Source of the DNA: Sulfobacillus thermotolerans
GTDB taxonomy: Bacteria > Bacillota > Sulfobacillia > Sulfobacillales > Sulfobacillaceae
Assembly: GCA_002951815.1 (NCBI GenBank)
Contig: CP019454.1
Span: forward strand, 806,001 to 870,000
Direction: 5' to 3'
Length of the DNA: 64,000 nt
Below the pieces are notes generated by a model, which saw only the letters and a list, made by a program, of their open reading frames with translations, was not told the DNA's origin and ran no database searches. Both the position numbers and the translations under genes were made by a program. Each line of letters opens with the position of its first letter. Position 1 is the first letter of the stretch. Positions 5,767 to 16,961 of the stretch are shown here, in pieces.

Positions 5767-6495
5767 TTACAAGGTTTGTTGTAAATAGCGAAGAATGCGG
5801 CGTGCCCATATATCGAGCCACGGCGGTGCCTTGGACACATATATCAGGGCCATGGTGCGTACCGGCCATATCACGCCGGGTGTTTCCACAGAGGCCAAAG
5901 TGTTTTGGAGCATATCCGCATAGACTAACGAGCGCGGCATGACGACAACGCCTCGTCCAGCGCGAATGAGGGCTTGAGCTGATTGTAAGGAATCCACGAT
6001 GATTTCATGAAGAGGATGGATGTTGAGCGTTGCCAACACCGTGCGGACGGTATACCCATGGCTAAGCGTTGGAGAAAATCCAATCCATGGCCAACTTTCG
6101 AGCGAAGACTCAAGAGTTTCGATGATATCGGGGCGTGCGATGGGGACCAATGGATCCTGATAAAGGGTCTTTAACGTCACTGTCGTCCCGAAACCATGGG
6201 TGGTGCGAATCAGGCCGGCTTTAAGCTCACCATTTTCCACACGGCGGATAATATCGTTGGAAGTTCCCGTTTGAATTTGCCATAGGAGACGATGCGACTG
6301 GTATGCATCTGGTAGAAGTTGTTCGGCCCAGCCACTAAAAATTCGGGCGATGCCGACCGCTTGGTATGAAGGTTGCGGCATGGTTAACAGCCGGTGGGCC
6401 TGACTCCAATGACTCAGACTAGATTTCAGCCATGGCAATGCCGGAATGAGAACGCTGCGTAGGCTTTGGGGATCGGTCCCCCAAGAGGGGTTCAA
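5767..6495 (-). pseudogene. LysR-family regulator, C-terminal part (gene split by IS607 element)
   Basis: About 240 residues resembling only the ligand-binding half of a LysR regulator (segments such as LIRTTHGFG, LVPIARPDIIE and ALIRAGRGVVVMPRSL). It has no DNA-binding domain of its own. The frame runs back to an in-frame stop at 6496-6498, right at the left end of the IS607 element. The missing helix-turn-helix half is on the far side of the element, same strand, at about 8690-8845. Joining the two flanks restores one continuous frame. A TTG at 6495 could in principle start a truncated protein, but it has no ribosome site and the product would lack DNA binding. Confidence 0.85.
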
Positions 6496-6555
6496 TCAGT
6501 ACCTAAAATATTGCTTTTTCTTCACTAAATCATATTTTTATGGTATAATTTAGAT

Positions 6556-7203
6556 ATGCTATTAAGTTTAGAAGAAGCAGCGAAAGTCTTAGGGGTATCC
6601 AAAAGCACCATGCGCCGTTGGGAAGCGGAAGGGCGTCTGAAACCCGAGCGAACGCCGGGCGGACATCGCCGGTATCGGTCTGAAGAGTTAACGCAAATGG
6701 CCGTGCATCCTCTGCCCAAAACAGATCGTGTGACCATCGCGTATGCTCGTGTGTCGAGTCACGACCAGAAAGCCGACTTGGAAAGGCAGGCCATGGTGTT
6801 ATCCGAGTTCTGCACAAAGAACGGCTGGACTCATGAGGTGATTCGTGATCTGGGATCCGGTCTGAATTACCACAAGAAAGGATTGCGTGAGCTTTTACAG
6901 CGCATTATGCGCAATGATGTGGAACGGCTCGTCGTCACCCATAAAGATCGGCTGTTGCGATTCGGCGCGGAACTGGTCTTTGCTCTCTGTGAAGAGTTCC
7001 ACACCGAAGTGGTGATCGTCAATAAATCAGAAGAGATGTGCTACGAAGAAGAACTGACGCAGGACGTGCTCGAAATCATTACGGTGTTTTCCGCGAGACT
7101 GTATGGTTCCCGGAGCCACAAGAATAAAAAATTGATTGAACGCATGAAAGAGGCGACGCAAGATGATGCGAACCAGGCGGAGGATGACCCGACAACCGAA
7201 TGA
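6556..7203 (+). CDS. tnpA: IS607 TnpA serine recombinase
   Basis: 215 residues. A MerR-like winged helix-turn-helix (about 1-45, LSLEEAAKVLGVSKSTMRRW then GRLKPERTPGGHRRY) precedes a small serine-recombinase catalytic domain. The catalytic Ser67 is in YARVSS, with the conserved THKDRLLRFG segment at about 128-137. This N-terminal-HTH order is diagnostic of IS607 TnpA, which moves the element through a double-stranded circular form. An AT-rich stretch ending TATAATTTAGATATG precedes the ATG, giving a -10-like sequence but no strong Shine-Dalgarno, so the transcript may be nearly leaderless. It overlaps tnpB by 41 bases. Confidence 0.92.
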   Translation: MLLSLEEAAKVLGVSKSTMRRWEAEGRLKPERTPGGHRRYRSEELTQMAVHPLPKTDRVTIAYARVSSHDQKADLERQAMVLSEFCTKNGWTHEVIRDLGSGLNYHKKGLRELLQRIMRNDVERLVVTHKDRLLRFGAELVFALCEEFHTEVVIVNKSEEMCYEEELTQDVLEIITVFSARLYGSRSHKNKKLIERMKEATQDDANQAEDDPTTE

Positions 7204-8566
7204 ACGCAAGGCCGTTTTGCTCCATGACCTCATCGACCGGTACGCCAAGCAGAAAGATGCGTACCTGGTGGCACTCGCCCAAACGAAGAACTGGTGCATT
7301 TGGCAATCGCCGCGCAAGGTCAAGCGCCGATTTGCCCGTCAGTACAGTCATCACACGTTACCGATTCACGTCGAAGATCAATGTTTTTTTGATGCCGTCA
7401 CGACGATGGTGGCATGGGTGGAGAGTGCCAAAGCTCTCAATCACTGGACGAGCCAAGTCTTCGCGCACACGGAGGATGAGAATGCGCGCATCCACTACTT
7501 TAAGGCATTCAAGTCCTATGCTGAACTGGCCCAGGGGCTGTCTGGCGAATGGCACGATCCGTGGTTGTTCCACTTGATGCGCAATTCCTTGATGCACCCA
7601 CCGCGGGTTCACAATCGGCATAGTGCCATGCTGGACGACAGTAGCTATCGCGTGTTCATCGAGAAAGGAAAACAATATATTAGCCTCACGAGTCTTGTCA
7701 AAGGTCAGCGTATCGTGTTACCCCTTCTGGGTAATGCAGGCATCCGTGGGACTATTCGCGTGGTGTACGCGGCCGATCACTGGGAGATTCATACGATGAC
7801 CCAGGTCAAAGTCCAGAAGATGTCCCCTCGCATCAAAAATATTGCGCTAGATGCGGGCACCACGGAAGTCTATACCGATCAGAATAACCGACGCTATGGC
7901 ACTGACTTTGGACGTATCCTCGCTAAGGTAGACGCGCAGGTGACGGATAAAGGCAAGAAGCGCAATCAAATTCGTGATGCCGCGAAGAATCAAGTGTTTG
8001 TCAGTGAAGAAGAACGCCAGGCACACCTCAAGAAAGTGCATCGAAACAATCTGGGCAAGAAGAAACAAAACATGCGGCGTACCACAGCCAGAGCAGCGTT
8101 TGCCACGGAAATTAACCATGCGCTCAACGATGTATTGGAACAGAGACCGCAACGGATCATTGTCGAAGATTTAAGCCACATGCGCGGCAAGGCCCAAGGT
8201 AAGACAATGTCCCGTCAAGTGTCCTTGTGGATGCGTAGCGTCCTGGCCGAACGATTAGATTTTAAAACCACGGCGAGAGGTTCTCGCCGACAAGCGGTTG
8301 CGTCAGCGTATACGAGTCAGGAGTGCTCTCATTGCGGTTTCACGGCCAAAGATAACCGCAAAGGGGATCATTTCAGGTGCGTGTTTTGTGGCACGGTCGA
8401 TACCGCCGATGGCAATGCAGCGAAGGTGATTTTAAAGCGGAGCACCGATCCCGAGATCAAACTGTGGATGACTAAAGAGGCCATTAAAAAGATCTTGGAC
8501 CAGCGCAACGCCCAAATCACGGGGGCAACCCCAGCGCCGGTTGTGAAGGTCGCATCGCTTGTCTAG
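7163..8566 (+). CDS. tnpB: TnpB RNA-guided nuclease (IS607-associated)
   Basis: 467 residues. The RuvC-like triad is complete: Asp230 (IALDAGTTEVYTD), Glu335 (IIVEDLSHM) and Asp416 (DTADGNAAK). The inserted zinc ribbon has Cys388/Cys391 (CSHC) and Cys406/Cys409 (CVFC). TnpB proteins, the ancestors of Cas12, cut DNA guided by an RNA made from the transposon right end and help retain the element at its donor site. The protein is on the long side because of an N-terminal region of about 220 residues before the first RuvC motif. The start at 7163 lies inside tnpA, suggesting translational coupling. No frameshift or stop was seen. Confidence 0.92.
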   Translation: MMRTRRRMTRQPNERKAVLLHDLIDRYAKQKDAYLVALAQTKNWCIWQSPRKVKRRFARQYSHHTLPIHVEDQCFFDAVTTMVAWVESAKALNHWTSQVFAHTEDENARIHYFKAFKSYAELAQGLSGEWHDPWLFHLMRNSLMHPPRVHNRHSAMLDDSSYRVFIEKGKQYISLTSLVKGQRIVLPLLGNAGIRGTIRVVYAADHWEIHTMTQVKVQKMSPRIKNIALDAGTTEVYTDQNNRRYGTDFGRILAKVDAQVTDKGKKRNQIRDAAKNQVFVSEEERQAHLKKVHRNNLGKKKQNMRRTTARAAFATEINHALNDVLEQRPQRIIVEDLSHMRGKAQGKTMSRQVSLWMRSVLAERLDFKTTARGSRRQAVASAYTSQECSHCGFTAKDNRKGDHFRCVFCGTVDTADGNAAKVILKRSTDPEIKLWMTKEAIKKILDQRNAQITGATPAPVVKVASLV

Positions 8567-8689
8567 GATGTGACTCACCGTTAACGGCCTGACTCTAGCA
8601 ACGGCAGACTGTCGTGGAAAGCCGTTCAGAGAGCGAACAATAAGACGAAAACTCCCCGTGAGTAGGTTTAGGGAAGTTTTTTGTAACGG
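8567..8689 (+). ncRNA. Putative omega (guide) RNA scaffold at the IS607 right end
   Basis: About 120 non-coding bases between the tnpB stop and the element end. They contain a 6-bp stem (AACGGC / GCCGTT, 15-base loop, about 8598-8625) and a second hairpin at 8648-8682. In characterised TnpB systems the guide RNA covers the 3' end of tnpB and the right end, and its guide is the flanking DNA just outside. Here that flank starts about 8690 and lies in the disrupted LysR gene. Scaffold limits and expression are inferred from position, not measured. Confidence 0.5.
8648..8682 (+). terminator. Terminator-like hairpin at the IS607 right end
   Basis: Stem AAAACTCCC pairing with GGG-A-AGTTTT (one bulged A) around a loop of about 14 bases, ending in TTTTTT. 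It could end tnpA-tnpB transcripts or be the terminal stem of the guide RNA. If it terminated efficiently, RNA would stop a few bases before the flank, so read-through would be needed to include a guide. Confidence 0.5.
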
Positions 8690-8845
8690 AAGATTCATTC
8701 TCTGACAAAGGCGTGACAAACGGGGGGATAGTGCCGAAGGAGAGAGGTTCAATTGGCGGCTGGCGCCAGCAAGACTATGTCCTTCTGCGAGCAAAACCAA
8801 AAGGTGCAAGTCGAACAAATCCATCTCGGGGAAACTCGCGTCCAT
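8690..8845 (-). pseudogene. LysR-family regulator, N-terminal HTH part (gene split by IS607 element)
   Basis: About 50 residues of a typical LysR winged helix-turn-helix: MDLFDLHLLVLLAEGHSLAG followed by the recognition region LNLSPSALSPRLSRLCQRMN. Homology stops at LP, where the IS607 right end begins; the downstream residues are element sequence. The start is placed at ATG 8845, with GAAGGA 13 bases upstream, while ATG 8824 begins at the more usual MDLF position. The ligand-binding half is at 5767-6495. It lies divergently from the broken methyltransferase gene, the classic position of a LysR regulator relative to its target. Confidence 0.8.
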
Positions 8846-8949
8846 TGTGGCATGCACATCCTTCACGGTCATCGTGTCTATCCTTCATGTGTCGAATGCC
8901 CGTCAGCCTGTATTATAGAGCAAACCCATACAGGGGGGAATTTACCATA

Positions 8950-9689
8950 ATGAACGAGTCCAACCAAAAAATTCGAGATTTTTTAGCCAACACCACCACG
9001 ATTACCAGCAAAGTGCGGCCCACGCCCGTGGTGCGGACTTGCAGGAGCTGCTTACCCAGCTGGCTATGCCTACGGGCGCCCAAATACTTGACGCAGCGTG
9101 TGGAACCGGTCATACGGCGTGAGCCGCTGCAGCTCAGGGCTATAAAGTGACAGGGCTAGACCTGACCCTGGCCATGTTAGAGGAGGGGCGGGCTGTGGCT
9201 AAGCAGCAGGGTCTTGCAGTGGAGTGGGTCGTGGGTGATGTGCATCACTTGCCGTGGCCCGAGGGGACTTTTGATGCGGTAACGTGCCGGCGAGCGGCGC
9301 ACCATTTTCGTGATTTGCCGAAGTTTCTTCAAGAGTGTCTTCGCGTTCTAAGACCGGGCGGTCATCTGGGCATTTCGGACATGACGGCCCCTTCACACGC
9401 TGTAGCCGACCTTAATGCGATTGAACGTTTGCGAGATACCTCGCATTGGGCGGCGCGCTCAGCCAATGAGTGGGCCCAATTGCTAGCGGACGTGGGATTT
9501 GACCTGATATACCTGCGCGTATCCGAGGAAGTCATGAGTCCACAGCAATGGCTATCACCTGTGCTGCCCGAAAGTCAACCAGGCCATGCGGCGCTACAAC
9601 GTCTTGAATCCCCTGACCTCGCGCCGGGCATTGTGGTGAAGGGACAATTTATCAAGTACCGGCTTGTGGCCGTGGCCAAAAAACCATAG
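8950..9689 (+). pseudogene. SAM-dependent methyltransferase (frameshift plus in-frame stop)
   Basis: A class I methyltransferase of the UbiE/Methyltransf_11 type read across three segments. ATG 8950 (AGGGGGGAA upstream) opens a frame reading MNESNQKIRDF. The frame is lost at a six-T run (8979-8984); adding one base continues it as SQHHHDYQQSAAHARGADLQ and the SAM motif ILDAACGTGHTA. A TGA at 9120-9122 then interrupts it. The same frame continues with AAAAQGYKVTGLDLT and later CLRVLRPGGHLGISDMT, to the stop at 9689. The second half alone (from GTG 9147) lacks the SAM-binding glycine loop, so it should be inactive. A sequencing error could explain one lesion, but hardly both. Confidence 0.75.
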
Positions 9690-9762
9690 GGCTATTTGCG
9701 CTAAAGCAGGGATTTGTCATGCATCCGTCGAATTACTCATGATAGGGACAGGAGGAATGGCC

Positions 9763-14384: not shown

Positions 14385-14459
14385 TGGTGGGCACGACAGG
14401 TATCGAACCTGTGACCTCTTGCGTGTGAAGCAAGCGCTCTACCACTGAGCTACGCGCCC
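14385..14459 (-). tRNA. tRNA-Val (anticodon CAC)
   Basis: 75 bases including an encoded CCA. Acceptor stem GGGCGCG / CGTGCCC, D-loop AGTGGTA, anticodon stem CTTGC / GCAAG around the loop TTCACAC, T-loop TTCGATA. The anticodon CAC reads GTG. It is the last of three tRNA genes on this strand. Confidence 0.95.
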
Positions 14460-14507
14460 GAAACAACGAAAGTTATTTTAGCATAGCCATGGATATGAGT
14501 CAACTGG

Positions 14508-14582
14508 TGGTGGGCCCAGAAGGATTCGAACCTACGACCAACCGGTTATGAGCCGGCAGCTCTACCGCTGAGCTATGGGCCC
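14508..14582 (-). tRNA. tRNA with CAU anticodon (Ile2 or elongator Met)
   Basis: 75 bases including an encoded CCA. Acceptor GGGCCCA / TGGGCCC, anticodon stem GCCGG / CCGGT around CTCATAA. The anticodon CAU is used by Met tRNAs and by the lysidine-modified Ile2 tRNA. The paired first base rules out initiator tRNA. The GGTCGTAGGTTCGA block resembles Bacillus Ile2 more than Met, but this is not decisive. The T stem has one T-T mismatch. Confidence 0.9.
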
Positions 14583-14590
14583 AATAAAAA

Positions 14591-14666
14591 TGGCTCCCCG
14601 AGCAGGACTCGAACCTGCAACCACCCGGTTAACAGCCGGGTGCTCTACCAATTGAGCTATCGAGGA
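14591..14666 (-). tRNA. tRNA-Asn (anticodon GTT)
   Basis: 76 bases including an encoded CCA. Acceptor TCCTCGA / TCGGGGA, D-arm AGCTCAATTGGTAGAGC, anticodon stem CCCGG / CCGGG around CTGTTAA, T-arm GCAGGTTCGAGTCCTGC. First gene of the three-tRNA cluster. Confidence 0.95.
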
Positions 14667-16575: not shown

Positions 16576-16928
16576 GCGAGCCGATATGATGACCGCGGGT
16601 GCCAGGCCGAAAGGCGGCATCTGAGGAAAGTCCGAGCTGCATAGAGCAGGGTGCTGGATAACGTCCAGTGGGGGCGACCCTAAGGAAAGTGCCACAGAAA
16701 ACAAACCGCCTAAAGCGTCGCTTTAGGTAAGGATGAAACGGTGCGGTAAGAGCGCACCAGAGGCCAGGTGACTGGTCTGCTTGGTAAACCCCACCCGCAG
16801 CAAGACCGAATAGGGGCAGGATGAAGTTGCTCGCTGAGCTGCCCGGGTAGGTCGCTTGAGGCGACAGGTAACTGTCGTCCCAGATAAATGGTCATCCACG
16901 ACAGAACTCGGCTTATAAGTTGACTCGC
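16576..16928 (+). ncRNA. rnpB: RNase P RNA
   Basis: About 353 bases with the universal RNase P RNA blocks in order: GAGGAAAGTCCGAGC near the 5' end, ACAGAAAACA, GAAACGGTGCGGTAAGAGCG, CCCGGGTAGG, AGATAAATGGTC and the terminal ACAGAACTCGGCTTAT. Ends were set by pairing GCGAG (16576) with CTCGC (16924-16928) as the P1 stem. The CGGTAAGAGCGCACC block and overall order resemble the ancestral (A-type) architecture more than the Bacillus B type; a covariance search would settle this. It is followed immediately by a T-run terminator. Confidence 0.95.
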
Positions 16929-16961
16929 AAAAAAACACCTACCAGCGGGTAGGTGTTTTTT
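16929..16961 (+). terminator. Rho-independent terminator of rnpB
   Basis: 8-bp stem CACCTACC / GGTAGGTG with loop AGCG, an upstream A-run and six Ts downstream. Textbook intrinsic terminator starting one base after the RNase P RNA. Confidence 0.9.

What the first reader, a model, noticed from the sequence alone, without database searches (positions are those of the whole stretch)
5767..8845. IS607 element has split a LysR regulator gene
The helix-turn-helix half of a LysR protein lies at 8690-8845 and the ligand-binding half at 5767-6495, both on the minus strand, with an intact tnpA-tnpB pair between them. Joining the flanks restores a continuous frame for two possible core dinucleotides (GG or AA), so the ends are known to within a few bases. 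Both transposon genes look intact, suggesting a recent or active element.
Basis: partly seen in the sequence, partly recalled or inferred. Interest (0 to 1): 0.6.

Follow-up and report, generated by a model that had tools for sequence, protein, structure and literature searches.

The report
Jumping gene splits a regulator gene
A small, apparently complete mobile DNA element has landed inside a gene-control protein of an acid-loving bacterium and cut it in two; this is a well-documented but ordinary kind of event, and the neighbouring gene that the regulator probably controlled is broken as well.

Summary
In this chromosome (3,317,203 bp, the length published for Sulfobacillus thermotolerans Kr1) an IS607-family element with open tnpA and tnpB frames lies inside one LysR-type regulator gene. 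A same-genus relative carries an uninterrupted orthologue in the same place, between the same hydrolase and methyltransferase genes. Joining the flanks gives one protein that aligns across the junction with 17 of 17 intact relatives (53% identity with the nearest).

Other copies of the element settle it. They share sequence up to GG at the right end and GGG at the left end, which excludes AA. Of the three possible GG registers only 6488-6489 / 8688-8689 is in frame. The inferred empty site then reads GGG followed by the guide, agreeing with the published (G)GG target preference of IS607 and the GGG motif of ISXfa1 TnpB.

"Recent or active" is only partly supported. A copy about 98% identical sits in S. 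benefaciens AMDSBA4, so the element lineage moved between genera recently. The insertion itself is undated: the divergent methyltransferase gene is also broken, and the regulator half carries a proline where 17 of 17 relatives have histidine. New member of a known kind, low to moderate interest.

The parts
5767..6489 (-). C-terminal (ligand-binding) half of the split LysR-type regulator gene, up to and including the GG core
   Evidence: Pfam LysR_substrate E 3.3e-17; aligned to intact relatives L010-L016
6488..8689 (+). IS607-family element, counted with GG at both ends (2202 bp; 2200 bp are lost when one GG is kept)
   Evidence: Ends shared with other copies and diverging outside; join in frame only in this GG register
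6488..6489 (+). left core dinucleotide GG, preceded by G at 6487 (GGG)
   Evidence: GGG at 6487-6489 in 10 of 10 left ends inspected
6521..6549 (+). promoter-like site upstream of tnpA (TTCACT-17-TATAAT, TG before the second hexamer)
   Evidence: consensus scan, (3 found in the region, 2.2 expected by shuffles; not evidence of function)
6556..7203 (+). tnpA, IS607 serine transposase, 215 aa (N-terminal MerR-type HTH, C-terminal resolvase domain)
   Evidence: NCBIfam transpos_IS607 226 bits; Pfam; phmmer to PDB 3lhk E 4e-35
7163..8566 (+). tnpB, RNA-guided nuclease, 467 aa; candidate RuvC residues D230, E335, D416; zinc finger CxxC at 388 and 406
   Evidence: NCBIfam guided_TnpB E 1.4e-20, below the curated cut-off; Pfam Cas12f1-like_TNB E 4e-12; motif positions
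8567..8689 (+). conserved non-coding right end, presumed reRNA (omega-RNA) scaffold; CCGTTA near its start can pair with the terminal TAACGG
   Evidence: 13-copy alignment, mean column identity 80%; consensus fold with 5 of 26 pairs showing double changes. The single-sequence fold is not better than shuffles
8688..8689 (+). right core dinucleotide GG
   Evidence: copies diverge immediately after it
8690..8709 (+). presumed guide segment of the reRNA (flanking host DNA, antisense to the LysR gene); length taken as about 20 nt by analogy
   Evidence: position next to the right end; guide role inferred from PMC10711439 passages
8690..8845 (-). N-terminal (HTH) half of the split LysR gene (the frame is open to an ATG at 8872)
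   Evidence: Pfam HTH_1 E 4.9e-7; aligned to relatives
8950..9690 (+). divergent methyltransferase gene, a pseudogene: frame shift near its start (about 8980-8990) and in-frame TGA at 9120
   Evidence: the orthologue in L010 is one open frame of 247 aa

Best explanation
An IS607-family element inserted by serine-recombinase exchange into a GGG in the linker region of a LysR-type regulator gene. It exchanged at a GG dinucleotide (now 6488-6489 and 8688-8689) without target duplication, and split the regulator after its helix-turn-helix. The TnpB and its right-end RNA probably use the first bases of the split gene (from 8690) as guide. The element's own right junction reads CGG before that guide, so the occupied copy would lack the GGG motif, whereas the inferred empty site reads GGG and would be cut and refilled. 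Shown here: the split, the synteny, the boundaries and the open frames. Inferred: the transposition chemistry, the reRNA and guide, the GGG motif for this TnpB, and loss of regulator function.
For: Intact orthologue in the same gene order (hydrolase, LysR, methyltransferase) in same-genus genome G001. A divergent methyltransferase next to the LysR gene in 18 of 18 loci examined. The joined protein aligns across the junction with 17 of 17 relatives. BLAST matches of five other copies (L030, L031, L035, L036, L038) end at 8689-8691 on the right, and 21 right ends with at most 2 mismatches are followed by differing flanks. GGG at 6487-6489 in 10 of 10 left ends. Only the 6488-6489 GG register is in frame. 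Published: all IS607 insertions at GG, (G)GG preferred, no duplication (PMC6188088, passages); ISXfa1 TAM depletion gives GGG, and the right-flanking nucleotide belongs to the reRNA scaffold (PMC10711439, passages). In the own genome the 17-base probe GGG plus guide finds the occupied site with one mismatch, exactly in the motif (CGG); the other 4 matches have 3 mismatches, and the reversed control also has 3 matches.
Against: No empty site of the same species or strain was found; the nearest uninterrupted orthologue is only 53% identical as protein, so the pre-insertion DNA is inferred. By homologue alignment alone the GG and AA joins score alike (311 and 312 bits against L010). The join in the GG register is 1-2 residues shorter in the linker than close relatives. 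The right-end survey used a pattern that already contained GTAACGG, so only the flanks and the BLAST ends are independent. The right-end RNA has no Rfam match at E up to 1 and its single-sequence fold is no better than shuffles (z 0.70).
Confidence: 0.94

Rival explanations
1. The element used AA as core (6494-6495 / 8685-8686), giving a 304-aa regulator.
For: The join is in frame and scores as well as GG against relatives.
Against: Different insertions share CGG beyond the AA on the right and GGG plus the following bases outside the AA on the left; those bases would then be host DNA and should differ.
Confidence: 0.02
2. The LysR gene (and the methyltransferase) was already dead when the element arrived, so the insertion was neutral and its GG register is not bound by reading frame (6487-6488 or 6489-6490 possible).
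For: The methyltransferase has a frame shift and a stop. The HTH half has proline where 17 of 17 relatives have histidine. The GG run is four long, so three registers exist.
Against: Apart from the insertion both LysR halves are open over their whole length, and one register restores a full-length frame. A gapless left-end alignment fits 6488-6489 with a G before it, as in all other copies.
Confidence: 0.15
3. The two halves are two separate genes or unrelated LysR fragments with a transposon between them.
For: Each half is an ORF of its own.
Against: One protein in each of 17 relatives covers both halves in order; neighbour genes match on both sides in L010; the C-half ORF as listed has no start outside element sequence (its TTG lies in the element's left end, with the boundaries).
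Confidence: 0.01

Closest known systems
IS607 family (IS607 of Helicobacter pylori, ISXfa1 of Xylella fastidiosa)
   Same: tnpA (MerR-type HTH then serine recombinase domain) followed by overlapping tnpB; GG at both ends; no terminal inverted repeat or target duplication seen; (G)GG target
   Different: TnpB is distant from the curated models (74 bits against a cut-off of 100 for guided_TnpB; 37.7 against 350 for IS607_TnpB); RuvC1 motif is DAG where the paper gives D-hydrophobic-G (I, L, F, W, Y, M) as typical
Element copy in Sulfobacillus benefaciens AMDSBA4 (PXYW01000039.1; L030/L041)
   Same: 98% identical DNA over 1759 bases and 97% over 311; same left and right ends
   Different: different insertion site; its tnpB has an in-frame stop at codon 424, and its tnpA is interrupted by a run of N in the assembly
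Other IS607 elements of the same chromosome (18 places)
   Same: IS607 tnpA followed by tnpB in the 7 read (L002-L008)
   Different: 66-67% DNA identity in tnpA only; the TnpB frames belong to another type
pro-Fanzor TnpBs (IS607, cyanobacteria)
   Same: IS607-borne TnpB
   Different: here RuvC1 is not DPG, and the RuvC2 glutamate lies 53 residues before the zinc finger (canonical position), not six

Membership tests
IS607 family | TnpA with N-terminal MerR-type HTH and C-terminal serine recombinase catalytic domain | tested here: met
IS607 family | GG (dinucleotide) core at both ends, insertion at GG | tested here: met
   ends compared with other copies; in-frame join
IS607 family | no terminal inverted repeats and no target-site duplication | tested here: met
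   no inverted pair joins the two termini among the 12 pairs listed; only GG is shared at the junctions
IS607 family | transposes through a circular double-stranded intermediate | not testable with these tools
   needs experiment
TnpB RNA-guided nuclease | RuvC catalytic triad D-E-D and zinc finger | tested here: met
   D230, E335, D416 by motif position; CxxC at 388 and 406; Cas12f1-like_TNB. No structure-based check was run
TnpB RNA-guided nuclease | reRNA scaffold at the right end running into the flank as guide | tested here: inconclusive
   conserved non-coding right end with a consensus fold, but no significant single-sequence fold and no Rfam match
TnpB RNA-guided nuclease | curated NCBIfam cut-off for guided_TnpB (a database threshold, not a biological property) | tested here: not met
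   74 bits, cut-off 100
LysR-type regulator (split gene) | N-terminal HTH_1 and C-terminal LysR_substrate domain in one protein | tested here: met
   each half has its domain; the joined frame aligns to 17 of 17 intact relatives
pro-Fanzor / Fanzor-type TnpB | DPG in RuvC1 and alternative glutamate six residues before the zinc finger | tested here: not met
   DAG and canonical glutamate

The most novel reading that the evidence does not exclude
The element represents a little-described IS607 TnpB lineage of Sulfobacillus and relatives (DAG in RuvC1, GGG motif) whose tnpB-less copies keep the reRNA end and may be moved and protected in trans; in S. thermotolerans its insertion knocked out a LysR regulator and led to decay of the divergent methyltransferase gene that the regulator controlled.
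Probability: 0.25. Interest if true: 0.4.

Novelty: new member of a known kind. Interest (0 to 1): 0.22.

Why it matters
It is a clean natural example in which the boundary, the core dinucleotide and the presumed guide and motif of an IS607 element can be read from sequence. The occupied junction (CGG) and the inferred empty site (GGG) differ exactly at the motif, as the TnpB retention model expects. It also shows a conserved regulator and target pair (LysR and methyltransferase, divergent in 18 of 18 loci examined) with both genes broken in one species. Otherwise it is ordinary insertion-sequence biology.

Tried and rejected
AA as core: rejected, because other copies share sequence outside it. 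Homologue alignment of the joined protein as a way to choose between GG and AA: no discrimination. Empty sites of two other copies were sought with their right flanks: for the S. benefaciens copy only short matches in other genomes; for the G002 copy a partial match in G006, but the matched blocks stop 489 bases to the left and about 145 bases to the right of the element, so the junction is not aligned. Rfam search of the element: no match at E up to 1. Domesticated or Fanzor-like TnpB considered: motifs do not fit. A nuclease-dead TnpB-like repressor was considered from recall only and set aside because the triad is present. TnpB on plasmids: 1882 records match, all below 60% identity, 2 with at least 80% coverage; not informative. 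PADLOC scan of TnpA and TnpB: weak matches to Cas12f/Cas12u models, as expected for a TnpB. Genome-contig scan with TnpB: 3 loci. Papers holding both Sulfobacillus and IS607: 1, on Acidithiobacillus (listing only); Sulfobacillus and TnpB: 0. The genome paper PMC6803676 has no occurrence of IS607 or LysR in its main text. In alignment A1 one row (L074) was given in the wrong stretch; A1 was dropped and A2 made anew with 13 rows.

Full report
What is there. The window is part of a single-contig genome of 3,317,203 bases. Between 6488 and 8689 lies an element with tnpA (215 aa) and tnpB (467 aa), overlapping and both open. TnpA meets the NCBIfam IS607 transposase cut-off (226 bits against 110), has MerR-type and resolvase domains, and matches solved IS607-type catalytic domains. 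TnpB matches guided_TnpB at E 1.4e-20 but below its cut-off (74 against 100 bits), and has the TNB domain, a D-E-D set by position (D230, E335, D416) and a two-CxxC finger.

The split gene. On the minus strand, an HTH_1 segment lies to the right of the element and a LysR_substrate segment to the left. Of 61 genomes searched with the C half, 29 matched. In same-genus genome G001 (locus L010) an uninterrupted LysR of 309 codons lies between the same hydrolase and the same methyltransferase. Both window halves align to it in order. A methyltransferase frame, divergent to the LysR gene, was found in 18 of 18 loci tested (L010-L027; L028 was not tested), although in L020 it is only 174 codons long, near the contig end. 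With the element removed, the regulator frame is continuous and aligns over the junction with 17 of 17 relatives given (L017 was left out as cut by its contig end), at 53% identity with L010 and 27-44% with the others.

The boundaries. Both keep the frame, and homologues do not choose between them. Other copies do. Without any end pattern, BLAST matches of five other copies (L030, L031, L035, L036, L038) end at 8689 to 8691 on the right. With a right-end pattern that itself holds GTAACGG, 27 places were found in 13 of 34 genomes of the family; 21 have at most 2 mismatches, and 6 have 3, at which level chance matches are expected (the reversed control also matches in many genomes). The sequence right after GG differs among the copies, except for one pair (L083 and L091) that shares its flank and is probably one old insertion. 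On the left, 10 of 10 ends inspected (L097 = window, L099, L098, L095, L039, L096, L100, L031, L033, L038) have GGG at the positions of 6487-6489, and the bases before it differ. The window has four G (6487-6490), so three GG registers exist, and only 6488-6489 is in frame. In that register the empty site reads GGG then 8690. IS607 insertions are all at GG with (G)GG preferred and no duplication (PMC6188088, passages), and ISXfa1 TnpB depletes GGG (PMC10711439, passages). The agreement is good, but the empty site is inferred: no strain without the element was found.

How it probably works. TnpA exchanges GG at the element ends with GG in the target (known for the family, inferred here). The non-coding end 8567-8689 is conserved in 13 aligned copies (mean column identity 80%). 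The consensus fold pairs CCGTTA near its start with the terminal TAACGG and includes a hairpin with some compensatory changes; 5 of 26 pairs show a double change. The window sequence alone folds no better than shuffles, so the reRNA is likely but not proved. By the published model the guide is the flank from 8690. At the occupied site the guide is preceded by CGG, at the inferred empty site by GGG. In the own genome, the probe GGG plus 14 guide bases finds the occupied site with one mismatch, in the motif; the other 4 matches have 3 mismatches, and the reversed control also gives 3. So the nuclease would spare the occupied copy and act on an empty one.

Recent or active? A copy 98% identical over 1759 bases and 97% over 311 is in G026, named as Sulfobacillus benefaciens AMDSBA4, which is in another genus in the table; the regulator proteins of the two genomes are only about 40% identical (L015). 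In tnpB there are 32 differences in 1404 bases, with dN 0.016 and dS 0.047 (NG86), leaving out one codon that is a stop in the other copy. This speaks for recent movement of the element lineage and some constraint on tnpB. It does not date this insertion. The element is single in this genome. The adjacent methyltransferase has a frame shift near its start and an in-frame TGA at 9120, and the HTH half has proline where 17 of 17 relatives have histidine. The locus therefore looks released from selection, before or after the insertion.

Verdict. It is an ordinary IS607 insertion into a regulator gene, with well-resolved ends and a broken neighbour. The searches made here found no paper on IS607 or TnpB in Sulfobacillus, but that library is partial.

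Noticed in passing
8950-9690 (+): The methyltransferase gene divergent to the LysR gene is a pseudogene (frame shift near the start, in-frame TGA at 9120), while the orthologue in L010 is one open frame of 247 aa.
   Followed up: partly
8690-8845 (-): The HTH half reads SALSPRL where 17 of 17 relatives have histidine at the proline position, in what looks like the recognition helix (helix assignment recalled, not computed).
   Followed up: partly
L038/L072 (G021:C79), L079 (G026:C92), L086 (G024:C122): Shortened copies: L038 keeps about 120 bases of the left end next to the last 430 bases of the element; L079 and L086 have tnpA-like sequence joined directly to the last few tens of bases of the right end. 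They may be non-autonomous elements keeping the reRNA end.
   Followed up: partly
L083 (G006:C106) and L091 (G005:C72): Right-end-like sequences with the same flank in two genomes of the genus, probably one shared old insertion of a more distant relative.
   Followed up: no
own genome, 18 places (for example L002-L008): Another IS607 type, 66-67% identical in tnpA, is present in 18 places; the 7 read carry tnpA plus a different tnpB of varying length.
   Followed up: partly
L041 (S. benefaciens AMDSBA4): The near-identical copy has an in-frame stop in tnpB at codon 424 and a run of N in tnpA.
   Followed up: yes
14385-14666 (-) and 16577-16931 (+): Three tRNA genes (Val, Met, Asn) and a class A RNase P RNA gene lie further along the window.
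   Followed up: no
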